Positions 22,721 to 62,100 of a stretch of DNA of 64,000 nucleotides are shown here, piece after piece. Each line of letters starts with the position of its first letter. Position 1 is the stretch's first letter. This DNA comes from Nematopogon swammerdamellus (taxonomy: Eukaryota > Arthropoda > Insecta > Lepidoptera > Adelidae), in contig OX336343.1 of NCBI GenBank assembly GCA_946902875.1, positions 5,693,754-5,757,753 of the forward strand, in the 5' to 3' direction. The notes beneath the pieces were generated by a model, which did no database searches, had not been told where the DNA came from, and was given only the letters and a program-made list of their open reading frames with translations. The position numbers were made by a program, and so were the translations under genes.

Positions 22721-23062
22721 TATCAGTGGCCAAATACAAGGAGACTATGAAACTCGCACCAAGCCCCAATAAAAAAGAAGCTAAGCGTGAGGACCGGTGA
22801 ACAAAAAACCTGTCGAACACCCGAAGGCAGGAAGTACAGTTTCAGATACTGAATCGTATAGGCTAGTTTTTATTTAATTTAAACCGGAGATCGCAGCGCT
22901 AACACCATCTGCTGACAAAAAGCTTCACTCTTTTGAGATCTATCTGTCGAACAGGCGCTCAATATTAAGATGTGCTCAACCTAGACGTGAAATTGCAAAC
23001 TGTCTACAGATATATTTATACCTTTTTATTTTATTATATTTTCTGTCCTCTGCAAATCCAAA

Positions 23063-24130
23063 ATGAGTCAGTGCTCTGTCTGCACAGAAAAAATCACAAG
23101 AATAAAACCTGGCCTGCAATGTATGGGGGAATGCAATGGATGGTATCACATAAAATGTACAAAACTTACAACTCAAGACATAGCGACCATCAAGAAAAGC
23201 CAGCTGGAGTGGAAATGTGAAGCCTGCAAGAAATCATCAAAAAGACCATCATTCATAATGGAAGAGGAGCCGCCGACCAGCCCTTTCACTGCTCCGCTCG
23301 ACATCAGTAACGCGGTCACCTCCGTCCAGTTCGATGTGAAGCGGATTCTCGCAGCTCTGCAGAAAAACGAGGAGAAGCTCGACGAAATACAGAGAACTCA
23401 AAATGAGCAAATACGAAAGCTCCAGGACCAGGTGAAGTCACAAGACGAGCAACTGAGGTTGGCCGGTGACGAACGTGACGAGCTGCGTCGGACTATCGAG
23501 GAAATTCGGTATAAATTCGACACCCTGGAACAGGATGCCCTTGCAGCCAACTTGGAAATACAGGGAATACCAGACAGCGTGGACCCGTCTGCGGCTATAA
23601 TGAAGCTGTGCGAGCGCGCGGGGTGCCCTATTACAGAAGCAGATATTGTATCCAGCTACCGTCTCCCGCCGCCACCAGCTCGGCCCACACGCACCGGACG
23701 CACCGATGCTGCCCCCACCACCACCGGTACCGGTACCGGTCCCGCCTCAGCCTCCACTGATCTCAACATGGGAGAAACACCAGCTCCGCTGCGCACGTCT
23801 TCCGTCATCGTGAAGTTGGCTAGCGTGGAACTAAAACGGACGGTTATAAAGGGATGCCGCAAGATGCAGCCTCCAGTCAAAGCGAACATCTTCAACGCAG
23901 TACTACAACCAAAATCAGCAGCATCAATTTATATAAACGAACATCTCACGACTCAGCGCAAAACCTTGCTTAAAAAAACAAAATTGTTTGCAAAAGATAA
24001 CGGGTACACCTATGTATGGATAAGAAACGGACATGTTCTCTTAAAGAAACAAGAAGGAGGCAAGGTACATTACATAAAAAGTGCAAAGGATTTTTTAAAA
24101 CTAGGGAATGTTTCGAGTGCTATAAACTAG
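23063..24130 (+). CDS. LINE ORF1 protein (PHD finger, coiled coil, FP_C-like domain)
   Basis: 355 residues. Residues 4-55 form a PHD-type zinc finger (C4, C7, C20, C24, H29, C32, C52, C55). About 95-165 is a heptad-rich coiled coil (NEEKLDEIQRTQNEQIRKLQ). A Pro/Thr/Gly-rich linker follows, then about 275-350 resembles the FP_C domain (QRKTLLKKTKLFAKDNGYTY). ORF1 proteins of this type bind the element's RNA and help form the particle that carries the reverse transcriptase. The start ATG directly precedes the zinc finger. No frame breaks. Confidence 0.8.
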   Translation: MSQCSVCTEKITRIKPGLQCMGECNGWYHIKCTKLTTQDIATIKKSQLEWKCEACKKSSKRPSFIMEEEPPTSPFTAPLDISNAVTSVQFDVKRILAALQKNEEKLDEIQRTQNEQIRKLQDQVKSQDEQLRLAGDERDELRRTIEEIRYKFDTLEQDALAANLEIQGIPDSVDPSAAIMKLCERAGCPITEADIVSSYRLPPPPARPTRTGRTDAAPTTTGTGTGPASASTDLNMGETPAPLRTSSVIVKLASVELKRTVIKGCRKMQPPVKANIFNAVLQPKSAASIYINEHLTTQRKTLLKKTKLFAKDNGYTYVWIRNGHVLLKKQEGGKVHYIKSAKDFLKLGNVSSAIN

Positions 24131-24604
24131 TCATTTTGCCGGTACAAAATGAAAAAAGCCGGATCTATGGGACTCGAAACACGATACGTATTACTGCTAT
24201 GCATTCATGTACAAATATTTTAGAAATGTTCTATACCTGTATTGATTGCAATTTTATTTATTTTTTACTTTATGTGTTTAACCACTTACAGATTACATTT
24301 GTGCCAAATGCATGGAAACTGTGTACCAGCAAATCAATTATGTCTGATCTAACATTTATTTCTGTGTTATGTGTTCTTTATACTCCGTATAAATTTCTAA
24401 CTTATATTAATATTAATATAAAATATTTTAAAATAACAAACCCTTTTTACTACTCTCATATGCATGAAGTCTATCATATCCATTATTCTATCATAACAAT
24501 ATACATCCATAAACAGTCCTTTACAGAAAACCTATTTAAAAATAGCCAGATTATGCCAGTCTGCAAAATGATATCTAGCCGATTATTCATAAGTAAAAAC
24601 AAAA

Positions 24605-27600
24605 ATGTTCGACTTAAGTACTGCCTACGCAAATTCCTTGAAAATGGTTAGACACACGAACGAAGATCTATGTAATAACATTGATAACGACGAATCGGCT
24701 GGATTACACAAATTCATAATGACAGACTGGCAACATTTTAGTTTCCCCGGAAACAAAGAAACAACTTTAACATGCCTTACGCTAAACATCAGAAGTGCGA
24801 ACAAAAATTTTAATAATCTAACAGTTCTCTTAGCCAAACTAAATATAATGTTTGACGTAATTATTCTAACTGAAGCATGGCTCAAAGATACATCCTATCA
24901 ACCCCAACACATTAATGGTTATGTGGCTTATAGTACCACCAAACATAATCGGCAAAACGATGGAGTCATAGTATACATTAGAACTCAAATTACAGTAATT
25001 ACTGAAGAACCTGATCTTAAAGATGCAAACGGACTACTACTGAAAATAGGTACCGATTGTGTAATTTTAGCGATCTACAGATCACCCTCAGTCCAAAACA
25101 TTGACCCGTTCCTGGATTCGGTATACGAAACTCTGAAACTGTACCATAATAAAAACTGTTGCATTATGACTGGTGACATTAACATAGATATATCAAATAA
25201 AGCAAGAAGTGAGAGAAAAACAAAATACCTATGTCTCTGTGCTGAATTATCCCTGAAACCAGCAGTAACCGATGTAACACGAGAAAACGCCTGTCTAGAC
25301 CACGTAATGATAAAAAGCAAATCAGAAATAACAACTATAGTCTATGAAGCAACTATAACAGACCACTCGCCTGTAATTTCTTTCTTACATAATCAAAAGA
25401 GCAAAATAAAGAATACCACGACTACACAATCATCTAAAACTGATTTCATTAATCTATATAAACATTTAGAGACTACTGACTGGACTGACACTCTCTGCGA
25501 ACAAAACACAAATTACGCGGCTGATACATTTATAAATACACTTCAAACAGCCATAAGCAAATTTACATCCACAAGCACAGTTAATACTAAAACTAAGATA
25601 AAAAAACCATGGATAACAAAGGGATTGATTAAATGTTTCAACAAACGGGACAAGTTGCATAAACTAGCGAAGACTTATCCATTTACCTATTTAGAGAAAT
25701 ACAAATGCTATAGGAACATATGCAACTTGGCCGTAAAAACTGCCAAAAATAACTACTATGAAAGAGAAATAGCTAAAAATATCAGAAACACTAAAAACAT
25801 GTGGAAAATTCTAAAAGAAGCCGCAGATATAAATACATCAAAGGACCAATCAGCATCAATACATCTAATAAAAACCGAGGAAACCAATGCCGAAAAAGAA
25901 GAAAAACTGAATATGTATAACCAATACTATATAGGAGTAGGAGTAAACTATGCTAATAAAAATCTTAAAAGAATTAAAAAAGGAGAAATTGATCTGATAA
26001 AGGAGGAGGAAGCTGTGGGAAACGCAACAAATGACTCGTTTTATATGAGACCAACAGATCCACATGAAATAACAAAAATAATAAAAGCATTGAAACAGGA
26101 TAGTGCATCAGGTTGGGACGGCATAGGCGGTAAACACATTAAAAGCATATGCACTTTGGTACTCGAACCACTAACCCATATATGCAATCTAAGTTTAAAA
26201 ACGGGTGTCTTCCCAACAGCCTTCAAAACTGCAATCGTATGTCCAATCTTTAAATCAGGTGACCATAGTGAAATAAAAAACTATCGTCCTATATCTCTGC
26301 TTCCTACCCTATCAAAAATATTAGAAAAAATAGTGAAAACCAGATTAATGTGCTTTTTAGAAAACAAAAACCTTCTGTCGAATAACCAATATGGTTTTAG
26401 GCCAAAACGATCGTGCGAAAATGCAGTTAATTGCCTAACCCAATACACTGTCGAACGCCTTGACAGGGGCCAAAAAACTCTAGCAGTATTTCTGGATCTT
26501 GCCAAGGCGTTTGACACAGTATCAATACCCATACTACTAATTAAAATGGAAAAAATTGGTATTAGAGGTCTACCTTTAAAATGGTTCCATACCTATTTAA
26601 AAAATAGGCATCAATTAGTTAAAATAGGCGATTATAAAAGCAAAACTGCTGAGATAAATTATGGCGTCCCTCAAGGCAGTGTGCTGGGTCCTTTACTGTT
26701 CCTAATTTATATAAATAACCTCTGTAACCTTACACTACACAACTGTCAAATCATTACCTATGCGGACGACACAGTTCTATTATTCTCGGGTAGGACATGG
26801 GCAGAAATATTCGAAAATGCAGGAAAAGGTCTAATTAAAACAAAAACATGGCTAGAAAATAATCTTCTCACACTGAACTCCGCAAAAACTAAATACATGT
26901 GTTTCTCTATAAATGCAGCAGGACAACCGGACAGTACACATAAGCTTAAACTTCATGACACAAGTTGCCCCATATCAGGTACATGCATCTGTGAAATATT
27001 AGAAAGGGTAAATCAGTTTAAGTATTTGGGAGTTACAATAGACAAGCACCTAACGTGGCGGTTTCACATAGAAATTGTAGCAAATAGACTCAGAAAGCTG
27101 ACCTACTTTTTCAAATCAATTCGAAACTGTGCCACCGTGCAAACAATAAAAACAGTATTTAGGGCTGTCGCCGAACCCATTATTGCCTATTGTTTAACAG
27201 TCTGGGGAGGTGCAGCTAAAACCTATTTAATCGAGGCTGAGCGCGCCCAACGCACAGCTCTAAAAGTTCTATTTAAAAAACCTTACAGGTATGGCACACA
27301 AGACCTGCTTCTAGAGACTGGAATGCTATCTGTGAGGCAATTGTACATATATAATACTATTTTTGCTGTGCAACAAACTAAAAGTACTGCTATAACAGAT
27401 AGACCTAACACGAGGAACCGAGAAAATCCACAGACAAATCGTTTACACACAACCTTCGCCCAAAGATTCAATATTTTCCTAAGTAACCACCTATATAACA
27501 AAGCTATAAAATGCTGTAATTTTCAAGAGAAAACTGGCAAACGTCGCAAACAGGAAATTCTCTCATGGCTGAAAACACTAAATTACGAAGCTACTGAAGA

Positions 27601-27622
27601 CTTACTTGCTGTTTTGTCTTAA
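24605..27622 (+). CDS. LINE ORF2 (apurinic endonuclease plus reverse transcriptase)
   Basis: 1,005 residues. The N-terminal APE-type endonuclease shows LTLNIRS, the catalytic TEAWL, GDINIDI and TDHSPV. The reverse transcriptase follows with NYRPISLLPTLSKILEKIV, NQYGFRPKRSCENAV, FLDLAKAFDTV, GVPQGSVLGPLLFLIYINNL and the YADD active site at residues 719-722, then KYLGVTID. The enzyme nicks target DNA and primes reverse transcription from the nick. No stop or frameshift is seen. Shorter ORFs on both strands here are shadows. Confidence 0.9.
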   Translation: MFDLSTAYANSLKMVRHTNEDLCNNIDNDESAGLHKFIMTDWQHFSFPGNKETTLTCLTLNIRSANKNFNNLTVLLAKLNIMFDVIILTEAWLKDTSYQPQHINGYVAYSTTKHNRQNDGVIVYIRTQITVITEEPDLKDANGLLLKIGTDCVILAIYRSPSVQNIDPFLDSVYETLKLYHNKNCCIMTGDINIDISNKARSERKTKYLCLCAELSLKPAVTDVTRENACLDHVMIKSKSEITTIVYEATITDHSPVISFLHNQKSKIKNTTTTQSSKTDFINLYKHLETTDWTDTLCEQNTNYAADTFINTLQTAISKFTSTSTVNTKTKIKKPWITKGLIKCFNKRDKLHKLAKTYPFTYLEKYKCYRNICNLAVKTAKNNYYEREIAKNIRNTKNMWKILKEAADINTSKDQSASIHLIKTEETNAEKEEKLNMYNQYYIGVGVNYANKNLKRIKKGEIDLIKEEEAVGNATNDSFYMRPTDPHEITKIIKALKQDSASGWDGIGGKHIKSICTLVLEPLTHICNLSLKTGVFPTAFKTAIVCPIFKSGDHSEIKNYRPISLLPTLSKILEKIVKTRLMCFLENKNLLSNNQYGFRPKRSCENAVNCLTQYTVERLDRGQKTLAVFLDLAKAFDTVSIPILLIKMEKIGIRGLPLKWFHTYLKNRHQLVKIGDYKSKTAEINYGVPQGSVLGPLLFLIYINNLCNLTLHNCQIITYADDTVLLFSGRTWAEIFENAGKGLIKTKTWLENNLLTLNSAKTKYMCFSINAAGQPDSTHKLKLHDTSCPISGTCICEILERVNQFKYLGVTIDKHLTWRFHIEIVANRLRKLTYFFKSIRNCATVQTIKTVFRAVAEPIIAYCLTVWGGAAKTYLIEAERAQRTALKVLFKKPYRYGTQDLLLETGMLSVRQLYIYNTIFAVQQTKSTAITDRPNTRNRENPQTNRLHTTFAQRFNIFLSNHLYNKAIKCCNFQEKTGKRRKQEILSWLKTLNYEATEDLLAVLS

Positions 27623-44100: not shown

Positions 44101-47100
44101 CGGGAAGCTCTTCCAGTTCCGCTACCAGCTCATCGTTCACAGGTCACCTACCTACACTACCATCAACCGTCCGTCGACGTTAGCTTAAGCCACAAACCGT
44201 GATTACCGTTTATAATACCGATATGCCGTACCAGATATTCACAGCCCCTGAGTCCTATTATCACAGCAACCTAGATATTGTGATCGTTCAATAGTTCGGA
44301 CGAGTTCGGACATTTCATTTCATTTTCATTTTAAGATAATATCAAGCAGCATGTAAGGTACGCAGAATCACCTGCAGCGTGACTCGGTGGGAGGACCATG
44401 CCAAGGTGAGGTGTATAGCACAGCATGCCATCCTTATCCTTTAGTCGTCTTTTACGACATGCTCACTATATTTGTGAAGTGCAATGTTCAACTCACAATT
44501 TGGAATCAAAACAAACGTCAGTGCATTGTATGTAAGGTATACGACATATTTTTGTAGAAAATTTAGTAATGATTGCAACCAACCATGCTAAATTTGCTAT
44601 ATGTGTTCATGGCCTCATCGACCGCATCAACCTCAACGTTTTATGGAGATGAGGCCACGGCGGCGCCGACGCCTGAGCGGTTAAACTACATTGATTTTGT
44701 ACCGTGTGGGGCTGGTACTTTAAAAGAACAGCCCCACTGCATGTCTCCCCGTGTATGTCGTAAAAGGCGACTAAGGGATATGACTCCCTTCTTATATTAC
44801 TAGGTGGTAGGGTTTAACCCGCCCGGGACGGTACCACCGCACTGAATGAAAGGTCGTTCGAAACGGCTATGTAAATAGTTTGTGTTTTCCATCCAGTTCA
44901 GTGTAGCCGGCACGACCGAAGGGAAGCACTGACGTGGCACCAAGTTCACCCAGTGTTATGGGCTGACATCACGGATGTTGTAGGTGATGTAGCCAACCGT
45001 GTCAGTTTCCATAAAAAAAAAAATTTACAGACTAGATAGAGCGTTACCGCTAACACTGGGTGTAGCTTGAGATAAGTGTGGGTGTGGTGTTGCAGACGTT
45101 ACCACGCGGAGCGCAAGCCGTTCACGTGCCAGGTGTGCGGGCAGGCGTTCTCGTCGCCGGCCGACCTCACGCGGCACGGCAAGTGCCACCTCGGTGGGTC
45201 CATGTTCACCTGCGCCGTCTGCTTCCATGTCTTCGCCAATGCACCCAGTCTCGGTACTTAGACTTACCACCTACCTAGCACCTAGCCGTACCTACCCGCA
45301 CCGCCCACCCCTCGTATGTGTCGTCCAGATAGACAGTGTTATGTTATAGTCTTCGTCCTCTAAACCCAGCGAAAAGCCATACAATCATTGACTCATTGTT
45401 AAGTGGATTGATATGGGATATTTGTTCCGAATGACTACTGCAATAAAGTTCAGTTTAGCATAATTAAAAAAAATTAACACTTCATACATACCACAGCACT
45501 AAAACAGTTCACCCTTTTATGGCCTTTCTTTGGGTTTAGATGGTGAATACTATACAACCGAATGTTTTTCCAATAGTATTGTGAGAATTCAAATTGAATA
45601 ATCTCAGACACAGTAATGAAAGTGTTAATAGAACTAGGGTCGTGCTTATGGCATGTACACTAAAAGCACTAACAATGAAAAATAATTGCAATAATACTAA
45701 ATGCATGTCAAAAATTTATTATCGCCTGTCACAAAGTAATGATCGATTCATAACAATAATTGTGCCTTTTCCAACCTTACTCATCTCTGAAGATAATTTC
45801 CTCAGATCAGCATGTGCTTTTAGAACGCCTCCCATTCAGCTGTGTTTTAAAAAAATTGTTTAAAATAAACAAAATCAATCAATATAGGCTAAATTCTTAA
45901 TTAAAGAATTTGACCTATATGGAAAGAAAGCTATGTTTTACCGAGACTGTGCATGTAATATATAACTTACTCACATTTTAAATTTGCATGAAACATTTCA
46001 AACTCCCGACAGTTTTAAACCCACACTTACAATCTCTATTCCTGCCTGACCCAGTCTAGATTTCATGAAAACTTAATCCATCGTCCTAATATACACTAAC
46101 AAGACCGAAACAGGTAATGCTGAACATAATATTTACTTACATGAACTCTGAATATGTACAAGTACAAATATCCAAGTGTTACACAATACATAGTCTTACT
46201 TTTTGTCCTTTAGATAATATTTACAAGAGAGAATGTGAAGAAATGAAAAGCCATAAATAATAATGTTGTGAGTGGGTAGTATGGGTTAATTAATAATTAT
46301 AAGTAGGTAGGTATATATAATAATTATAAGGCACTAATAAAACATATTGTCTTTCAAAGTTTGTTTGTCCGTTCTTCACGTTGAAATAGAACTGGCGGAA
46401 TTTTCAACATATCCAAGACTATCCTTAATTATGCAATAATCAATAAAACCATATCTCGTTTTCTACAATGTTTCTTCTATGTAGTGTCACTTGAACATTC
46501 ATTGCTGTTTGGGAGAGTAAGAGAAATAAGATTTATTGCAGGGGGGGGGGGGGGGGGGGGGGGGGGGATTAGGAGGAATTGAGCCCAAAAAAATTGCACA
46601 CAGCAGAAATATCCTCTGATTTCGTCTTATTATATGTTCTGTATCTGTATTGTTTTTGTTTATTGTTTATTTAGAATCTATTGCTGCGCTCAGATTTGTA
46701 ATATTTACATTGTAACATTCCGCCAGTTCGATTATCACAGCGAAGAAGAACTGACAAGAAACTTCACTGGACATTTTCTCAATGTGAGAAAATCCGAATA
46801 TTAGTGAAATCATATACAATCAAGAGGATAATCTTCCTTCACGCAAATTGGGCCCAAGAGTCCAAAGCAGAGTACCTTAATTAGCTTTGCAGAAATTTGT
46901 AGACACCCCGTACGCACGATTGGTTGATGAGGGCGCAGGTGACGAACTCGTCACACAGTGGCTTCACCGAACACATCTGGGCCCATTGCAAGTTGGAGAA
47001 GATTTGAATTGAGCATATGTCTTAGCGATTGGCCTATCTTGCTCTCTTACAGCGAGCTAGAACTTTCGGCTCAGTCAAGCCCTCTTCCGCTAGTCTGGCG

Positions 47101-50100: not shown

Positions 50101-53100
50101 TTATCGTGACAAACATTTAGCGTTAGGCACAGTCACATTGTCATACAGATAATGATGATGAAGCAATAACCCCTTGTACCAATCAGTAGTTACTCTAAGC
50201 CTAGCGCCACACTCACTCTATTTTGCGCAGCGCATTTTGCAGAGTATTTCGACGTAACAACGTATTTTGTGCTCAGTGTGGTGCACAGTAGAAATTTATA
50301 TGTAGAGCAATATATAATACGTACGACACAATTCACAAACGCAGTGAAAAATACCCTCAAGTGTGGCACTAGCATAAAAGAATGTAACTCATTTGTATTA
50401 TCGTAATTTATATTTCCTGTCTCAGGATATTTTGTATATTAGTGATTATCGCAATTTTCACAACTCACTCATTTCTAATATCAATCAATTGCTTATATAC
50501 AGTATCCTAGCATACTAATTCATCACAAAATGGCTGTACTTATGCTTTACAATTTGACTAGCTGTAACTGCAGCTTCGCTTTGCAGAAATATATCCAAAA
50601 ACCATCCTAAAGGAGCGTACTCACCGGGAACTAGAAGTTCGCGTTACAAATTTTGTCTCGCCACATGATCCCCCAAATTTTACCAAAATGTATCTTCTAG
50701 TAAAATACATACGTACATACATACCACCTGCTGTGAGCCGGCAATCAGGGTAAGTTAAAAGTTTGCGCGAACTTTTGTTCACGGCGCGAATGTTTCTGAT
50801 GAGTACGCTCCTTTAGATGTGCCTTAATGTGTGAGTGAACACCCCACATTCATTGATTGAGTACTTCTCGACTTATATGGGAACGCAGAATGATGCCGTA
50901 TCGAATTTACTTTGTGCTCTGCTTAATGTCTGGGTTATCGCGTATTCTATTTCAACTCATAATTTTGTTTGAACCTGTCTGGATAGCTCTGATATAATTA
51001 TTTTCAGTGAAACATCTGTATGGAATTATTATGTGAAAATATTATTTTGATATTGAAAATATAAACTGAATACATGACCTAGGTAACTAAATGAATTGCC
51101 AGACAGCCAATTTGTGATACACATCCTATATTGGGTTTCTACGTCGACTGTTGAAATGTTGAAGTAAATGTGAAGAATGCATGAGTTCATCAGAAGAGCA
51201 ATGAGTTTCATCTGTCGCCGGAGCACGGTCACCACTGTGGTGGTCACCACTGTTATGAGGCGAAGCCATCTTATCCCAAGACGCACCAGTTTTACAGCTA
51301 ACTTAGTACGTGATGTCAGGGTAGACTTCCCATTGAATGATTCAACTATGCCATACTTCATTGGTATGGATCGTAAAACTATCAAAATTTGATTCCTGAA
51401 AGAACCTACCGATCACCAATTAAGTTTGCAGAATGGTGTTGAAATATGTTTCGTATGCTCGTAATAGTTGCATCATTGAATATTAACATATTATTTTTCG
51501 CTCCCCTTCGTAGGTGAGACACCCCACCATTGTCAGATTTGCGGCAAGAAGTATACTAGGAAGGAACACTTAGCGAACCATATGCGCTCCCATACAAATG
51601 ACACCCCGTTTAGATGCGAACTCTGCGGGAAATCATTTACGCGTAAGGAGCACTTCACCAACCACATTATGTGGCACACCGGTCAGTATGCTGCCTCTAT
51701 TTCTTGTTTTACTCACTCTTCAATTACTCCCGGGCCCTTCCTTCATAATAATATCGTCCGCGATGGGATGACTGACGGGTGTTCACCCGAAGATTGCCTC
51801 AAGATGATGCTTAAAATGTTGAAACTGACTCCATGTGATGCAAGGGCCCGGTGGTCGTTCATTAACAATTGACTGAAAGTAGGGATCCAGAGTTATCCAG
51901 GAGAGCTTATAAATGGCATTGCACGATAGATAACATTCCATGCCAGTCGCTTACTATTTGATCGTGTAAAGTTGGTGTGATGCTTGGGATAAGCTGTGGA
52001 GCTGTACACTGGCATATTCCCGCGACACCAACCGCGCGCTCGGCTCAGAGCCACAAGCGATGACGTGAGCCAGCTCGCGCGCTGCGTGCTGTCCTTTTAC
52101 TTTCTCTTTAACTTTTGTTTATTGTTTATTGAGCATTATTATGGCATTAAGACTGCACTCGAACTTGTCACTATTTTTATGTTCTATTCGTTCTTCTTTT
52201 GAACTCACTTTTTTAACCTTTTTGCTTTGTTCTTTTATAGTTAATTATTTTCGTTGTTAGTTTTATAGCCAATGTTTTTATCAATGCAAATTTCAAACTC
52301 AACTTTAAACATCTTGAGACGAGCTGCCTTTTTCAATGTTTCATATCCTCCACTGAGGCATGCTGTCTCTTGCATACTTTCAAAAAGATTCCAAGTTCAT
52401 CAAACGAACGACATGGCAGACACTTCAAATATTAATTTACTAACACTAACAAACCACAATGACAATACAATAAGTCACGGGAACGATCTGACGATGTTTC
52501 CGGAGCGAGAGCTCGTGGTGGTGTGCCTGTGGTTGCGAGCGCGGCGGGCGGGTTTGGTTTGCTAGTCCCCGGCGGGCACATAACAGTGGATGTGACGTTA
52601 CCATGCGGCAGGCGAGACCCCGCACCGTTGCGACTTCTGCTCTAAGACGTTCACTCGCAAGGAGCACCTACTGAACCACGTGCGCCAACACACAGGGGAG
52701 TCCCCGCACCGATGCAACTACTGCTCCAAGTCCTTCACGCGCCGCGAGCACCTCGTCAACCACGTCCGCCAGCACACCGGCGAGACGCCCTTCCAGTGCG
52801 GCTACTGCCCCAAGGCCTTCACGCGCAAGGACCACCTCGGTGAGTTCACCGCACGCTTCGGCCTTCCGCCAACTCTCACTCGACCGAAATATCAATGCAT
52901 GCTTCCTGCCTTCAGAATCCCCCCAGTATTAGAGGTTCCCCTAAGTGAGCAATAGCCATATTTATGTATAGCAAGTTTATTAAAAAAAATTTGTCACAGT
53001 TTCTTAGTGAACCCCCCTACCAACCCAGATGTGTACGTGCTAAAAATTTTGATTTTATACGTTTTATGTTCTCGTTTGCAGTTTCACAATATTTGAAATA

Positions 53101-56100
53101 GTATTAGTGAATAATTCTAGAAGAGAAGAGTGGTTGTTAGTGTTTTCATTTTACGAAGGCCTCGTGCCTTCAGGTACGATGTAGGAAGTGGTGCGAGAGG
53201 CGACCGCGTGGAGCTCAGTAGAGAACGAACTCAGTGCCCGGTCGGTACACACGTTCTACTCGTCTCTGCATCGCTCCGTCGAACCAAGTCGTTCCCTACT
53301 GAGCTTCGCGCGGTCTCACACCACTTCCTACCTCATACCCCTCGTGCCTTCGTAAAATGAAAACACGCTATTGCTGCTGTATGTGAAGAAGAGAAGTGCG
53401 TGAATGAGTGCGTGCCCGCCCGCAGTGAACCACGTGCGGCAGCACACGGGCGAGTCGCCGCACAAGTGCTCGTACTGCACCAAGTCGTTCACGCGCAAGG
53501 AGCACCTCACCAACCACGTGCGCCAGCACACGGGCGAGTCGCCGCACCGCTGCCACTACTGCTCCAAGTCCTTCACGCGCAAGGAGCACCTCACCAATCA
53601 TATACGGTGAGTGCGCGGCGCGGCGGGTGTTGCGGGCGCGGCGGGCCGACGTCGAGCGTAGTCCAGCGACAATATATTTTTTTTTGTGTAAACCAACATG
53701 GGTTGCTGTGCCGAGAGACCAATGATGCATTCGACAGAGCCAAAAACACCTCTCCTCGCGAAACCACGGCTCTCGGCTGTCTAGCCTGTTAATATGACGT
53801 TTGAAGACACACGTTATTGTGTAGCCTTGTGCAATTGTCGCTATCAATATCTGAGGCTCGGTCAATGATCTCTAGATTAATCCCTAGATTCGAGGTTAGT
53901 CTCTCGACTGGTTTTTAGACTAGACTCGGGACCGGCTCCTAAACATGTCTGGTTTCTGGTCAAATATGTAGACTAGCTTCTGGACATGTTTTTAGACTAG
54001 TCTGTATACTAGACTCTCGCCCAGTCTCTAGGCTACTGTAGACTAAACTTGTTCGAATACACAAATATTCACCTTGGTGACATAGATTGTAGCTGAACCC
54101 AAATTCAAAACAACAAATCAAAACAAATGTTATAAACTAGCCGAAGATATTGTCATCCAAGCACTTAGGGTGAGACCGAACGAGTGTAATTTTGTGAGTT
54201 CTGAGACGTATATTTTGTTTGAGTCACGTAATTTACGCTGCATGCTATCAGACAACTCATTTTGCGTCGCGGTGTGGCATAAACCGAACTTTTATATGAA
54301 GCCGAATGCAGCGTTAATTACGCGACTTGAAATACGCGACTTACAACTCACAAAATTACGCTTGTTTGGCCTCACCCTTAATGGGAACTCAGACTTAACA
54401 AATATTTAAATGCACACCCGTCAACAATTCATGATAAGTTGAAAGGGACTAATTCGCAGACTACACTCGACTACAACTGAATCCGCAATGCTCTGTTATC
54501 TATCTAGTTAGTTATTTGGAAGAACAATTTGTTTTGTCCGTTTAGAGGTGGTATTTTTTGCATGAAATTAAACTTTTAGATGTATGGCTTGGTGAATGAG
54601 GCCTCAGATCATGTCCTGTGGTGTAGGTTCAGTTGGTCGAAACGTTTTTATCAGAAAAGACCACATCTTCACTTTGCTAAAGAACAAAACAAAAAAAAAA
54701 CAATAACTTGTGTAAATCCCCACGTCATACTATTATAAGTTGACTGCTTGGAATGTCTGTATAATTAAAAAAATAGCGCGGTATCTAGAGTGATTGGGAA
54801 TGCTTGAGCAGAAGTGTGTGCACAGGGGGGAGGGGGGCGGGAGGTGTGGTTGTTTTCTGATAAATGCCGTTTGTTGTTGAGCAGTCAACACACAGGTGAG
54901 ACACCGTTCAAGTGCTCGCTCTGCCCCAAATGGTTCAGTCGCAGAGAGCACCTGACGAACCATGTGCGACACCACACCGGCGACTTGCCACACAAATGCC
55001 AATATTGCACCAAGGCCTTCTCCCGCAAGGAACACCTCACCAACCACACGAGGTAAGTGCGGCGGCGGCCGCGGCCGGCCGGCTTGACAGTCTCGGCGCG
55101 GAGTGTGTGTCACCCGTACGTTGTGAATACGCGCGCGTGCAATCAGTTTGAACATTGGTCATTTTGATGTGACTGCATAAACGACACAGGATAGATTTTT
55201 CGTTAAGTGACACATCGATGTGAACGAGACTATCAATCTTGTTGCGTCCGGTCGGTGCATGTAGTCCCTGTTGCGAGATATAACGATTTATTTACGTTTT
55301 AAGCTGGAACACTTGTACTTTTTTTCAACTCGCTCTCTTTGCTGTAAATTTTTATTTCCTCTAATTTGTGCATATTTTTTTATTTTAATTAATAGAAATA
55401 TTACATCAATTAATGTATAATGTAGATAAATTTGTTTTATATCTCGTAACATAGGCAAGCGTGCGACTCTAATATTGACCTTTATTAATTTTTCATTTTC
55501 ATTTTGGTTACAAAGGTCAATGTTAGTGGTACAACGTACATTTGTGTGAGTTTCCGCCTGGGCAGTATCTCGGTAACATTTTGTAAGCACGCAGGAATGT
55601 ACATTCCGATTTGAGCGTAACTTCAACTCAATCTTCACTTTTCTGGGTCTTCGCGCTCCATTCCTTACATTTCCTTCCCTACACAACCGGTGGATGGCAT
55701 ATAGGATCGAGAATGTAATAGTAAGTTTGAAGATGAACATTCAAAGATGTCCACTAGTAATGATTCTGTGTCGAGTATGCGGCGAAATGTTATACTCCTA
55801 AGCCGAGTTACTCGGAGAGCTAAAATCCATCTCCGCATGACGTGAGCTTGAGCGCGAGGTGCGTGGGCGGGGGCGGCGTCGCTCGAAACGTATCTCAAAT
55901 CGGAACGTACGTTCTCTGTTGCGCAGGCAGCACACTGGGGAAACTCCACACAAGTGCACGTATTGCGCGAAGGCGTTCTCGCGCAAGGAGCACCTCACCA
56001 TCCACATCCGGCAGCACACGGGCGAGACGCCGCACCAGTGCACCTACTGCAGCAAGGCGTTCAGCCGCAAGGAGCACCTCACCAATCACATTCGGTACGT

Positions 56101-59100
56101 ACCGGCCGACGTTACCTCGCCCCGTCTCTCACACCCGACACACGCACACGCGACACCGCTCACACCGGCCAGTACGCAGTCTCCGTCCACAGCGACGGCT
56201 AAGTCGCGACCACGGCAGCTGGGGAGACAATAATGCTTGGAGGAAAAAAATTAGGCCTCAGCGGTCTCGCAGAATAATTCACAAAATCTGACACACCAAA
56301 TTGATAATAACCACATGCAAAAATGACGTATGAAATATGACACTATAAATGTTTGCCTCTAAGCAAAAATGTATGAAAAATCTTTGAACAGTTTTCGCAC
56401 TGGCCGGCGACAGTAACAACAAATGACACATTTTTATCTCCACTGAAGCTGTGCTGTGGCCGTTGTCGTCTAGTGCGCAAGCGACCAATATAGACATTGG
56501 TCGCTGATCAGCGTAGAGATGCATCGAAGAACTAAACATTAGGCATACGACTAATCGTATTTAATTGTAAAATTTGTGATAGTGAAAAATTAAAAAAAAA
56601 CATCCAATATTTTCTTGTACAGTTGACTTGAATTTGTAATTAATATTGATTCAACATTATTTATAAAATGGTCTCGCTGATATCTTTTGGGTTCAAATCG
56701 GAACACATTTTTTTGATATTTTAAAATAACTTTCAAACGATTAGAATTGACTTCTCCGCCAGATGGTGCATTCCGATTGGGACTGAAAGGATTCCTTGCT
56801 CGCGAACTAAAATGAGTTGTTGCAATAGAAATTCAGTTGGATGTGTTCTAATCGGAATGTACTGCGTGCAGACAGCACACTGGTGAGACCCCATACAAGT
56901 GTACGTACTGCACCAAGGCCTTCAGTCGCAAGGAGCATCTCAACAACCACATTCGGTACGTAGCGCATACATACATACGTCGTACGTTAGATTACGTTAC
57001 ACGCACACACGTGTACAGCTGTTACGATCGGTAGACCTATACAATCTCACCCTTAGACTTAAGCTGCAGCGGAGATTGTGCGAGATGGTAAGAAACGGTC
57101 GCGTTCGCTGATTGGCTTCGGTCTAATCTTTGCGGTTCAAATCGGAATAGTTGGTAGTTTTTTTGCGGTTAGTTTTCTTACTTTTTAACGGACAATTCCA
57201 TGAATGATAATCATGTGTTTGGCATTGCGCAGTTGCGCTGAAATTTATCTTTTTAATGCAATGCTTAGTTTTTCGGAGTTGTGTGTTGTTGAAATATTGC
57301 ACTGAACCAAAAATGCATGCTGAATGATCTATGAAATCAAGTTAACTCTTTCACTGTTACGAATGAACGAATTGTCCGACAAACCGAAATGCGCTCTGAA
57401 CAATTCGTTTGTGGTGGTGAATAGGTTAAGAGTTTCTTAATTTTGTTTTGATTTGACGTTTTGTATTGTTTGTTTTATATTTTTTATCGGTATCATTGTA
57501 ATCAGAATTTAAAACTGAATTTCTTTTAAATAATGAATAACATAAGAAATCATAAAATAAAAGTTATTCAAATTTATCATAATCTTGACTGTGGAATCAG
57601 TGGAAAAAAATTGTAATCAGCATGCAATTCAAAAACATTTTTGGTTACAGACAAAACAGTTGTAGTATTACAATGTAGACAGAGCTCTGCTATATACATC
57701 AGTGCAGTTCTCAAGAGCGCATTATTTCTCGAACTAAACGGATCTAAGCTAATGTTTAGGATGATCTTTTTGGAATTGTCTATGAAAGTTTTATGGCGCG
57801 TGTAAAGGTTATTTTGCGAGCTAGACAGTGCATTCCGATTGGGACTGAAAGGATTTTGTCGTTAGCGAATTAAAAGAGTAAAGAAACATACGGATGAGTT
57901 AAACTGGATGTTCTAATCGGAATGTACTGCGCGCAGACAGCACACGGGCGAGACGCCGTACAAGTGCACGTACTGCACGAAGGCGTTCAGTCGCAAGGAG
58001 CACCTCACCAACCACATACACATGCATACCGGAGAAACTCCCCACAAGTGCCAGTACTGCGCCAAGACCTTCTCGCGCAAGGAGCATCTCACCAACCACG
58101 TCAGGTCAGTTGTCGCCCGCGTCGCACTCTCCACTCACTCGCCCCACTCCCGCGGCGCAGCCCAAACAGCTTGTACTAGAGTACGGATCTGGCAACGCGG
58201 ATGCAGTGATGTGCGGGAAAATTTCCGTATATTGTGTGCACCGCGGCGTCCTTTTGCAAAAAAGCCGCAGTGTATGGAGATTGGTGCCTCGCACAATCGC
58301 ATCGGGCATTGTCACGCTTATAACCTGAGACGCTATCGTGGGATGTTTAGGATCAAATTAATGATGAATGATTTCGTCCGTTTCGAAAATATTTGTGTGG
58401 GAAACGGTTGCACAAACTCACTTGTTAGAGGTGCGTGTGTTTTGTCCGTATATTATTTTCGAAATGGGCGAAATTTGTTTGTCGTTCATTTGATTTACTT
58501 TAACGTAAACATCCCTCTGTGCAGAGTCCACGCTGTCACTAATCCAAGCTGCCATACAGATTCTCCGAGTAAAATAATCATCTGAGTTTAAATAATTGTA
58601 AATTAGAGCTGAATTGTAAGTAGAGGAGATTAGCTTTTGCAAATGAAATGAGCTGTCGCCGGGGTGGGTGAATGGCCGCTCTAATGCGTACGTGCTGGGT
58701 GCAGACAGCACACCGGCGAGACTCCGTTCAAATGCACGTACTGCACGAAGGCGTTCAGTCGCAAGGGGCACCTCGCCAGCCACATACTCAGGCACACCGG
58801 CGCGACGCCGCACAAGTGCGCGTACTGCCCCAAGGCGTTCTTGCGCAAGGAGCATCTCACCAACCACACCAGGTCAGTGTGCGAACCCATCTCTTCTTTT
58901 AACTCTCGGATTACACTCCGGCCGATCCATCGACCACGCTCCACTATACTAACATGCTGTTTAAATCACTATTATATTGTCGCTGGAATTTGACTGACAA
59001 GAGGGGAGATTTCATCATCTTGGGCTAAAATCTAGCTGAGGGTTAACTCCTGTCAACTGTGTGAGAAATTTCACTCTAAGCGAAAGAAAGTTAGTCGAGT

Positions 59101-62100
59101 CTTAACCGGAGTTGGTGAAAGAAGCCAAAAGATATCAAATTTCCAGCGATGATATTAGCGACTGCAAATCGGTAAGTAGAAGTAAGCAGGGTAGCAATAA
59201 ATAGACTGAAGCTTATGAACACGACACATTGTACTTAATCTAGATTAATAGTAATTTAAGATATATAACTGTGCACATACTAAAACATGTTGCAGGTTCT
59301 CTATTGTGTACTGAATGAACAATGTCCAGAGTTTTATGTGATCAGTTAGTCCAAAATAACCACTTGTGGCAATGACAATTTGGTACAGTTCCCGGCAGCA
59401 AATAATGCGTGTCGAGCTTGAGAAAGAGACGTACCGATTGTAGAGCGTCGTCCCTGTCGCGCAGAGACGTGCGAGTTCGTGCGACAGGGACGACGCTCTA
59501 CAACCGGACGGTCTCTTTCTAAAGCTCGACACACTATATTTACTGCCGCGAACTGTAGCGAACAAATTCTAACAGTTTATGAATACCATACTTACCGTTT
59601 AGTTATGTAGGTAGAGAGAATAAAATTTTCCTCATTTTTACAGACAATAATTTATTTGGAACTATTTTGTGTGGACAAATGAAATTTGAGGGGCTATATA
59701 CAGGGTGTCCCAAAACTCAACGTCAAGCGGGAACCAGGGAGTAGGCCAGTTTATGAGTACCCAGGGAAAAATAAGAAAAAAAATCGGAATCATTTGTTTT
59801 TTATGATATGAGCATTTTTTTGAGAAACATTTTTTTAACATTTACATTTTTCTTGTAGAAATGGAACTAGAAATCAAATGTGCACGTTTGATTTGATACT
59901 GTTTGAATGCAACTTCTTCTGTGTGCTGTTCGGCTCTTTTCCGGTGATGGTTTAAAAAATGGTATATCTTCTCTTGGGCTGTTGTGTGTTGTCAATAATG
60001 TCACTGAAATAACTGAGAACTCGGCGTATGAGAGTGCGGACGAAGGACGACGACTTATTGAGGGTGAGAGGATTGAGAATGATAGGAAGGATCGGCTTAC
60101 TTATTGCAAATCAGAAGAAACGGCTATGTAAATAGTTTGTGTTTTCCGACCAGTTCAGTGTAGCCGGCACGATCAAAGGGGGAAGCACTGACATGGCACC
60201 TAGTTCACCCGGTGTTATGGGCTGACATCACGGACGTTGTAGGTGATGTAGCCAACCGTGTCAGTTTCCAGAAAAAAAAAAAAATTAGAACTTAATGTGA
60301 ATAAACACATTACCCTCCTTTGCGTCGTGCAGTCGGGTAAAAAGAGGAATGATCGACTTCTTAATGCTAATGAAAGGAATAATCTACTTACTTAATGCAA
60401 ATGAGAGGAGTGTACAACTTACTTAATACGAATTAGAGGAATGTACGACTTACTTAATACAAATGAAAGGAATGTACGACTTACTTAAAACGAATGAGAG
60501 GAATGTGCAACCTTACTTAATGCAAATGAGAGGAATGTACGACTTACTTAATACAAATGAGAGGAATGTACGAATTACTTAATACAAATGAGAGGAATGT
60601 ACAACCTTACTTAATGCGAATGAGAGGAATGTACAACTTGATGCGAATGAGACGAATGATTCACTTACTTAATGCAAATGAGAGGAATGTACGAATTACT
60701 TAAAAGGAATGATCTGCTTACTTAATATGAGTGAGAGGAATGATTGACCTTACTTAATGCGAATGAAAGGAAAATCTACTTATTAATGTGAATGAGAGGA
60801 ATGATCAACTTAACGCGAATGAGAAGAATGATCAACTTACATATTGTGTTGCACAGAATTCACACGGGCGAGTCGCCGCACCGCTGCGACTTCTGTCAAA
60901 AGACGTTCACACGCAAGGAGCATCTGACCAATCACCTGAAGCAGCACACTGGCAACACTCCGCACACTTGCAAGGTGTGCACGAAGCCGTTCACCCGCAA
61001 GGAGCACCTCGTTAATCACATGAGGTACGTACCGGCCGACCGACCTGTTCCTTTTTTTTTATGTAATCCGGTATGTGTGGCTGAGTCAGAGGGGCCAAAG
61101 CGCATGCTCCGACCAGCCAATATCACCTCTGAGAAGGTAGGTGCCATACCGGAGACTTCCCTGGATTGCTGGCTATACTGAACTAGAGGAGAACACAACC
61201 GAGGCTGCTATGCGGCCATCTTACATCCAGTACGATGGTACCAACCCATGCTACAACCTCTACTGATTCGTTTTCTAACATTGTCTGTCTCGAGCTCGCG
61301 ATAATATTACTATTATCATTCTCCACAGAGCCTCACAATCATTTAGCGGTATGAACAAATGAATATAGGTATTCTTAATTGTGTTGGTATCGCTCCTGAG
61401 ACGGGCTGATGGTTATATTATGTCACACTCGAGCTGTCAGTGGCACTTGATTTGCCTCCAGTTATACCTATTGTCATAGTACAGATACGTAGTTGACATT
61501 GGACGCTAAGCTCAAGTGGCAGTGTGCTGGGCACGTCAGCCGAAGAGGCGACAACCGTTGGAGTAACTGTGTCCTACACTGGCGGCCGTGGACAGGAAAA
61601 CGTGAGTGTGGTAATACCCACGGGACGGCATCATGTACGTCGAAGGTTAGCAGGGGTTCCGTACCGCTGAACGCCGGGAGGATTGGAGGAAAATTGGAGA
61701 GGCGTATGTCCAGCAGTGGACGCTTACACTCTGACTGACTGACTGACATAAGAAGGAAAGTGGGGAACTAAGCTTGCGATGGCTTCACCGAACATATCTG
61801 GGCCCATGGACAGTAGAGGAGGGTGTTCATCGAGGTCGGGCGCGGGACTAACGACTGGCCACTCTAAATTTCCCGCGCATGCTTCACATTTCGGCTCGCA
61901 TCAAGCCCTCGTCAGCTAGTCTGCGTTGACTAGGACGCGGGGAAACACCAGTCCCGCTCTCGACCTCCCTCTCTCTACCTATCCATATTCTGTAGGATGC
62001 TTCCAGTGATGTTTTCGAAGCTCTCTCCATGTATGAGCTTAGCGTCGATCTTGACAGCCCTAGATTCTTGAAGAGACTGTGAGCGATTTCGCTGGTAGTC

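What the first reader, a model, noticed from the sequence alone, without database searches (positions are those of the whole stretch)
55594..57929. Docking-site/selector-like RNA pairing in the crol zinc-finger cassette array
The introns before exons 17, 18 and 19 each hold a 5' element of type CATTCCGATT and a 3' element of type AATCGGAA(T/C)G close to the acceptor, able to pair over 17-22 positions. Pairing is kept through G-U pairs where the sequence differs (exons 18 and 19). The copy at 55599-55611 (GTACATTCCGATT) is perfectly complementary to 56850-56862 and 57915-57927, so one upstream site can reach the selectors of all three exons, and it also fits two further elements at 56692 and 57136. 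This is the layout known from mutually exclusive exons of Dscam, here in a zinc-finger transcription factor. Seen: the complementarity. Known: competing stems control mutually exclusive splicing in insects. Inferred: that they do so here.
Basis: partly seen in the sequence, partly recalled or inferred. Interest (0 to 1): 0.9.

Follow-up and report, generated by a model that had tools for sequence, protein, structure and literature searches.

The report
Branch-point hairpins before zinc-finger exons
In a moth or butterfly gene for a many-fingered DNA-binding protein (crol), the introns before three skippable finger exons carry matched RNA hairpins that would cover a signal the splicing machinery needs, which suggests, but does not yet prove, that RNA folding sets which fingers the protein gets.

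Summary
The gene is crol; exons 16-20 are five in-frame zinc-finger cassettes. The introns before exons 17, 18 and 19 each hold their own 20-22 nt hairpin whose 3' arm runs into the acceptor; before exons 18 and 19 it buries the best branch-point match (CTAAT). The exon-18/19 arms occur only here in the 699 Mb genome, so they are no MITE. They are 48/48 identical between these two introns while spacer and fourfold sites diverged; all four positions changed on both sides between hairpins 17 and 19 still pair; four of five arm pairs are much more stable on the sense strand. A further upstream arm competes for the same partner in the exon-18 intron. This favours one local hairpin switch per exon over one docking site for all three: cross-pairs break at co-changed positions. 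Strict mutual exclusivity is not supported: of 14 lepidopteran crol models, 4 carry the exon-17-like and exon-19-like cassettes together, 6 only the latter, 2 only the former, 2 neither. No RNA-seq and no introns of other species could be reached, so function is inferred. A 2.4 kb fold preferred long-range pairing and stands against the local reading.

The parts
54885..55052 (+). crol exon 16 (cassette, two C2H2 fingers, phase 2-2, 168 nt); no matching hairpin at its acceptor
   Evidence: control
55594..55616 (+). P1, 5' arm of hairpin 17; holds the 14-nt palindrome GGAATGTACATTCC (55594-55607)
55893..55915 (+). M1, 3' arm of hairpin 17, in the branch region of exon 17 (no YTNAY motif found in -50..-1)
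55927..56094 (+). crol exon 17 (cassette, two fingers; of the two-finger cassettes here the closest to cassette A of other Lepidoptera, 71-80%, but 75-80% to cassette B too)
56681..56703 (+). M2, upstream competitor arm; pairs with the 3' part of P2 (about 22 nt with two mismatches, -29 kcal/mol)
   Evidence: (z -3.9, 0/500)
56763..56793 (+). P2, shared arm: 56764-56783 pairs with M3, 56770-56793 with M2 or M4; 28/28 identical to P3 over 56766-56793
56845..56865 (+). M3, 3' arm of hairpin 18; contains CTAAT 56848-56852, unpaired probability 0.011
56872..56955 (+). crol exon 18 (cassette, one finger, 84 nt; copy of the first finger of exon 19, 73/84 nt identical)
57125..57148 (+). M4, relative of M2 in the next intron (77% over 35 nt); can pair with the 3' part of P2 or P3 (24 nt, two mismatches)
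   Evidence: with P3 not significant over the upstream intron (20/200)
57825..57855 (+). P3, shared arm of hairpin 19
57910..57930 (+). M5, 3' arm of hairpin 19; contains CTAAT 57913-57917, unpaired probability 0.001
57937..58104 (+). crol exon 19 (cassette, two fingers; 84-88% identical to cassette B of other Lepidoptera)
58705..58872 (+). crol exon 20 (cassette, two fingers); CTAAT at the same -24 place but no matching hairpin, CTAAT unpaired 0.922
60857..61024 (+). crol exon 21, to which exon 15 (53426-53606) would join when no cassette is used

Best explanation
The introns before crol exons 17, 18 and 19 carry local RNA hairpins (P1-M1, P2-M3, P3-M5) whose 3' arm is the branch/acceptor region. 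Closed, the hairpin hides the branch region of a pyrimidine-poor acceptor and the cassette is skipped; opened, the cassette joins in frame and adds one or two fingers. In the exon-18 and exon-19 introns an upstream arm (M2, M4) can pair with an overlapping part of the same P arm, so P is either held upstream (branch point free, exon in) or on the acceptor (branch point hidden, exon out). For exon 18 the upstream state forms first during transcription and the two states come close to balance in some fold windows. Shown by computation: pairing, strand, copy number, conservation between copies, paired changes, in-frame cassettes, use of 0-2 cassettes in orthologous models. Inferred: that pairing happens in cells, that it masks rather than helps the acceptor, and that M2/M4 act as release arms.
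For: Acceptor arm against local sequence z -6.65, -7.0, -8.0, nothing at five control acceptors. Four positions changed on both sides between hairpins 17 and 19: 4/4 still pair, two of them with a G-U on one side; cross-pairs P17-M19 and P19-M17 fail at 3/4 and 4/4 of them. Arms 48/48 identical between the exon-18 and exon-19 introns, spacer 32/48 plus 8 gap columns (Fisher 7e-6), fourfold sites of the exons 4/10 (Fisher 5e-6). Sense versus antisense duplex: P2-M3 -29.9/-15.8, P3-M5 -32.1/-19.2, M2-P2 -24.0/-13.4, M4-P3 -24.8/-14.2. CTAAT unpaired 0.011 and 0.001 for exons 18 and 19 against 0.922 for exon 20. M2-P2 core pairing 0.91 before M3 is made, then competition; P2 against the 100 nt upstream z -3.9, 0/500. 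Only here in the genome. All 21 junctions among exons 15-21 read Arg in frame; cassettes skippable in orthologous models.
Against: No RNA-seq, no probing, no introns of other species. Hairpins 18 and 19 are copies of each other, so paired changes rest on about two independent hairpins, and the four strand-asymmetric pairs share arms that were picked on the sense strand; P1-M1 shows no asymmetry, -29.5/-29.7. The 2.4 kb fold prefers P1-M5 (0.955), P2-M2 (0.804) and P3-M3 (0.848) over the local hairpins. The exon-18 balance flips with the fold boundary. Over -40..-18 the branch region is as closed at exon 16, which has no such hairpin, as at exon 17 (both 0.16), and exons 18 and 19 (0.33, 0.36) are only a little more closed than 20 and 21 (0.43, 0.44). 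M4-P3 20/200 and P1 upstream partner 31/200 are not significant; the exon-18 intron is 8/100 in the whole-intron test. Exon 17 lacks a YTNAY branch point. In known insect systems pairing by an acceptor can activate it (passages).
Confidence: 0.46

Rival explanations
1. Dscam-like competition across introns: P1 (and P2) act as docking sites, the acceptor arms M1, M3, M5 as selectors; long-range pairing loops out the exons between and makes the choice among 17, 18 and 19 exclusive or nearly so.
For: P1-M3 -33.2 and P1-M5 -30.4 kcal/mol with 13 contiguous Watson-Crick pairs; the 2.4 kb fold gives P1-M5 0.955 and P3-M3 0.848; copying of exon plus intronic arms is a published route to such systems (PMC6071210, abstract and Discussion read).
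Against: Each intron has its own P arm; cross-pairs 17 versus 18/19 fall to 15-17 of 21 and break at the co-changed positions; 4 of 14 orthologous models hold both main cassettes; exons differ in size (84 against 168 nt).
Confidence: 0.21
2. The hairpins help rather than hide: they displace a repressor, bring the acceptor nearer or keep decoys away, so pairing raises inclusion of weak acceptors.
For: In Dscam1 exon 6 and in PGRP-LC pairing by the acceptor is said to activate it (passages of PMC8042237 and PMC9013439); pyrimidine content in -22..-4 is 0.42 for exons 18-20, the lowest of the eight acceptors compared.
Against: The stem includes the CTAAT itself, unpaired 0.011 and 0.001; exon 20 has an equally weak acceptor without the hairpin.
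Confidence: 0.15
3. No RNA function: inverted sites for a DNA-binding protein (CATTCC/GGAATG resembles the TEAD/Scalloped core; recalled, not tested), or leftovers of inverted and tandem duplication.
For: Short shared core in both orientations; P1 holds a 14-nt palindrome; duplications are evident.
Against: 12-13 further paired positions beyond the 8-nt core in each local pair; strand asymmetry in four of five arm pairs (arms picked on the sense strand); arms kept while the spacer is not; G-U compensations do not follow from template switching (reasoning).
Confidence: 0.14
4. Dispersed MITE ends.
For: Hairpin-like arms in introns; other inverted repeats lie nearby.
Against: 27-nt P arm with up to 3 mismatches: 2 places, both here; 20-nt M arm: 2 exact places here, 16 others all at 3 mismatches, against 7 for the reversed control; 106-nt stretch: 2 places, both here. 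Tool counts are lower bounds; P1 and M1 were not searched.
Confidence: 0.01
5. The double strands serve A-to-I editing rather than splice choice.
For: An editing QTL thought to act through local RNA structure is reported for Drosophila crol (PMC4573499, two passages read).
Against: Stems of 20-22 nt are short for ADAR (recalled); nothing here tests editing.
Confidence: 0.03

Closest known systems
Docking site-selector competition in insect mutually exclusive exons (Dscam1 exon 6 and relatives)
   Same: Intronic arms by the acceptors of tandem duplicated exons; one sequence able to pair with several; paired changes and G-U intermediates.
   Different: Each intron has its own partner arm and the local pair fits best; two acceptor arms include the branch-point motif; orthologous models use 0, 1 or 2 cassettes; exons of unequal size; a zinc-finger gene.
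Stem-loops that hide a branch site (review PMC11802352, section 5 read)
   Same: Branch-point motif inside a stable local stem beside a skippable exon.
   Different: Here the unit is copied over neighbouring exons and has an upstream arm competing for the same partner.
Duplication model for competing structures (Ivanov and Pervouchine 2018, PMC6071210, abstract and Discussion read)
   Same: Exon and intronic arms were copied together (exon 18/19 units).
   Different: Both hairpin arms, and a related upstream arm, are present at each copy, giving local switches rather than one docker and many selectors.
Drosophila crol isoforms (D'Avino and Thummel 1998; only the title seen, in a reference list; 12-18 fingers recalled)
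   Different: The cassette block between exons 15 and 21 is absent from the two beetle models seen; the fly gene was not examined here.

Membership tests
Docking site-selector mutually exclusive exon cluster | One docking site complementary to the selectors of all variable exons | tested here: inconclusive
   P1 pairs 13 nt with M3 and M5, but each intron has its own P arm, and 17 versus 18/19 cross-pairs are worse than own pairs
Docking site-selector mutually exclusive exon cluster | Exactly one exon of the cluster per mRNA | tested here: not met
   In orthologs only: 4 of 14 lepidopteran models hold A and B together, 2 hold none; not testable in this species
Docking site-selector mutually exclusive exon cluster | Compensatory changes in the arms across species | not testable with these tools
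   No introns of other Lepidoptera were reached (searches found no locus); between the copies here 4/4 double changes keep pairing
Branch-site-masking hairpin | Branch-point motif lies in a stable local stem | tested here: met
   By folding: CTAAT unpaired 0.011 and 0.001 for exons 18, 19 against 0.922 for exon 20. Not met for exon 17, which has no YTNAY; actual branch points unmapped
Branch-site-masking hairpin | Opening the stem raises exon inclusion | not testable with these tools
   Needs minigenes
Competing structures made by duplication | Exon and adjacent intronic arms duplicated together | tested here: met
   P arm, M arm and first finger copied between the exon-18 and exon-19 units; M2/M4 related, 77% over 35 nt
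MITE or other dispersed repeat | Many copies in the genome | tested here: not met
   (exon-18/19 arms)
crol (crooked legs) orthologs | Sequence of the N-terminal region and order of fingers | tested here: met
   Protein searches: 14 lepidopteran models, 57-68% identical over the N-terminal query; tblastn of one of them, P0134, printed against the window, blocks up to 86%. The name crol rests on shared N-terminal and finger order with beetle models and is otherwise recalled

The most novel reading that the evidence does not exclude
A duplicated three-arm RNA switch (upstream M, shared P, branch-point M) works co-transcriptionally at successive introns: whether P is taken first by the upstream arm or later by the branch-point arm decides, exon by exon, how many zinc fingers crol receives, so that transcription speed or an RNA-binding protein tunes the DNA-reading domain of a regulator.
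Probability: 0.24. Interest if true: 0.8.

Novelty: new variant of a known kind. Interest (0 to 1): 0.62.

Why it matters
If right, RNA folding sets the length of a DNA-binding finger array in an ecdysone-pathway regulator. It would extend structure-controlled splicing from genes such as Dscam1 to the DNA-reading part of a transcription factor, and offer a small natural system in which a hairpin switch was copied with its exon, so that origin and co-evolution of such switches can be followed in related Lepidoptera.

Tried and rejected
MITE reading: rejected by genome searches. One universal docking site: lowered by cross-pair counts. Strict mutual exclusion: lowered by orthologous models. Viral and prokaryotic contig collections scanned once each for another crol locus with introns: 7 and 16 pattern matches, none a relative. 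The 2.4 kb fold gave a long-range arrangement unlike the local folds; I give it less weight because long folds are unreliable, but it counts against me. The covariation tool was not used: three rows, two nearly identical.

Papers. Ten searches: (crooked legs, zinc finger, mutually exclusive, splicing: none; docking site and Lepidoptera: two, both Dscam/MXE; crol isoforms: nine listed; 14 listed; six listed; 15 listed; 348 papers, 12 listed; 15,412 papers, 12 listed, none with 'crooked legs': uninformative; crooked legs and Lepidoptera: two, one of them on Bombyx FoxO, neither opened), 67 (crooked legs and alternative splicing: four, none opened). By titles and starts of abstracts none reports RNA structure or cassette control in crol; most subscription papers are not held. 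Opened only by passages: PMC10325914, PMC8042237, PMC4573499, PMC11802352 (plus section 5), PMC7404189, PMC9013439, PMC6027157; the passages of PMC7404189 and PMC6027157 were not used. PMC6071210: outline, abstract and Discussion.

Dropped before the count of 14 models: P0071, P0075, P0121 and P0136 (end or go out of frame before exon 15) and P0137 (424-aa weak hit, sequence not looked at). Of the 14, 13 run through exon 21; P0127 does not and turns into an odd repeat after its cassette; I count it as A only. P0122 I assign to A by eye, its 57-residue cassette being one residue out of step in the scoring. The 14 are representatives of clusters at 90% identity, several of them numbered predicted isoforms; other isoforms of the same species were not seen. 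Beetle, ant and unnamed insect pieces P0010, P0104, P0140 end before the cassette site and were not counted.

An earlier count gave the palindrome three bases too far right; one search is correct.
Full report
What the region is. The window lies in a 699 Mb, 39-contig genome held without a name. The + strand from about 32.1 kb on encodes an ortholog of crooked legs (crol): 14 lepidopteran models match its N-terminal part at 57-68%, and tblastn of P0134 finds its blocks in order with up to 86% identity. Exon 15 is 53426-53606 and exon 21 is 60857-61024; between them lie five cassettes, 16 (54885-55052), 17 (55927-56094), 18 (56872-56955), 19 (57937-58104) and 20 (58705-58872), of two, two, one, two and two fingers. 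All are phase 2-2 and all 21 junctions among exons 15-21 read Arg in frame. Exon boundaries are my own from splice signals; no transcript was available.

What the elements are. Three elements carry TTCCGATT (P1, P2, P3) and five carry AATCGGAA (M1-M5). Order: P1-M1-exon 17-M2-P2-M3-exon 18-M4-P3-M5-exon 19. M1, M3 and M5 end 7-14 nt upstream of the exons. Eight of the 11 copies of the 8-mer in 64 kb lie in these 2.3 kb.

Chance. Against shuffles of the local upstream sequence the acceptor arms reach z -6.65, -7.0 and -8.0, while acceptors 14, 15, 16, 20 and 21 show nothing. A harsher test, a 50-nt tail against the whole intron, leaves introns 16/17 and 18/19 at 0/100 and 17/18 at 8/100; the four others are at 10, 9, 23 and 30/100, so in that test the exon-18 intron does not stand out by itself. 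Against 2000 real non-exonic places in the window each hairpin is matched or beaten by 26-28, because the window has other inverted repeats. P2 against the 100 nt upstream of it (M2): z -3.9, 0/500; P3 against its upstream intron (M4): 20/200; P1 against its upstream intron: 31/200.

Not a mobile element. The 106-nt hairpin stretch has two places in the genome, both here; the 27-nt P arm with up to three mismatches two, both here; the 20-nt M arm two exact places here and 16 others, all at three mismatches, against 7 for the reversed control pattern. These counts are lower bounds by the tool's own note, and P1 and M1 were not searched.

Evidence for RNA. The introns before exons 18 and 19 are identical at 48 of 48 arm positions (28 in P, 20 in M; also without gaps), but at 32 of 48 spacer positions with 8 gap columns; the aligner put one further gap column at the 3' edge of the P arm. 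The first fingers of the two exons agree at 4 of 10 fourfold sites. The M arm's identity could partly reflect branch-point function; the P arm's cannot. Between hairpins 17 and 19 four positions changed on both sides (k = -7, -6, +8, +11 in the register) and all still pair, two with a G-U on one side. Own pairs reach 19, 20 and 20 of 21; P17 with M18 or M19 17, P18 or P19 with M17 15; 18 and 19 are interchangeable at 20. Duplex energies are much lower on the sense than the antisense strand in four of five arm pairs and equal in P1-M1. The arms were picked on the sense strand, and the four pairs share arms, which weakens this.

What pairing would do. CTAAT lies at -24 of exons 18, 19 and 20. 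In folds of -400..+60 it is unpaired with probability 0.011, 0.001 and 0.922: exon 20, with the same motif and equally poor pyrimidine content but no such hairpin, is a natural contrast. Over the wider branch region (-40..-18) the contrast is small, and exon 16 is as closed as exon 17 without any such hairpin. Local folds give P1-M1 0.993, P2-M3 0.90-0.997 and P3-M5 0.999. Before M3 is transcribed, M2-P2 has 0.91; afterwards M2-P2/P2-M3 moves with the end points, for example 0.65/0.29, 0.0002/0.999, 0.62/0.32 and 0.02/0.97. The 2.4 kb fold instead gives P1-M5 0.955, P2-M2 0.804, P3-M3 0.848. So the arms can compete locally and across introns; the co-changed positions speak for local pairs as the selected ones.

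Isoforms. In 14 lepidopteran models that reach past exon 15 the next stretch holds no cassette in 2, one like exon 19 in 6, one like exon 17 in 2, and both in 4 (the exon-19-like cassettes are 84-88% identical to exon 19, the scored exon-17-like ones 71-80% to exon 17). Two beetle models join 15 to 21 directly. So cassettes are skippable and the two main ones are not strictly exclusive in those species. Exons 16, 18 and 20 have no separate counterpart in these models; whether introns of other species hold such arms could not be tested.

Known ground. Competing intronic pairing in tandem duplicated insect exons is established (PMC8042237 passages; PMC6071210 abstract and Discussion), and hiding a branch site in a stem has been proposed (PMC11802352 section 5). 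I found no report of either for crol in the searches listed under Tried and rejected. I file this as a new variant of structure-controlled splicing, not as a member of the docking-selector family.

Noticed in passing
51514-51683: Exon 13 (two fingers) and the double cassette A+B never occur together in the 14 lepidopteran models: 4 of 4 A+B models lack exon 13, 10 of 10 with exon 13 have at most one cassette. Could be coupled splicing that keeps finger number constant, or an effect of seeing one representative per cluster.
   Followed up: partly
55594-55607: Perfect 14-nt palindrome GGAATGTACATTCC at P1, the only match in the window with up to 2 mismatches.
   Followed up: partly
53140-53366: Nested inverted repeats (arms of 21, 26 and 27 nt, 88-100% complementary) about 60 nt before exon 15; looks like a small inserted element, and would fold next to that acceptor.
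   Followed up: partly
54162-54383 and 59379-59562: Two further inverted repeats (54-nt and 82-nt arms), MITE-like, in introns 15/16 and 20/21; copy number not searched.
   Followed up: no
22991-27622: Two long open frames on the + strand upstream of the crol start codon, resembling a non-LTR retrotransposon with endonuclease and reverse transcriptase (by eye).
   Followed up: no
60069-60483: Repeats with a 31-nt spacing in the exon 20/21 intron.
   Followed up: no
45190-45270: Frame for an extra finger block (FTCAVCFHVFANAPSL); CFHVFAN is absent from all 14 lepidopteran models and present in 4 of 5 other insect pieces checked, so it may be skipped or dead in Lepidoptera.
   Followed up: partly
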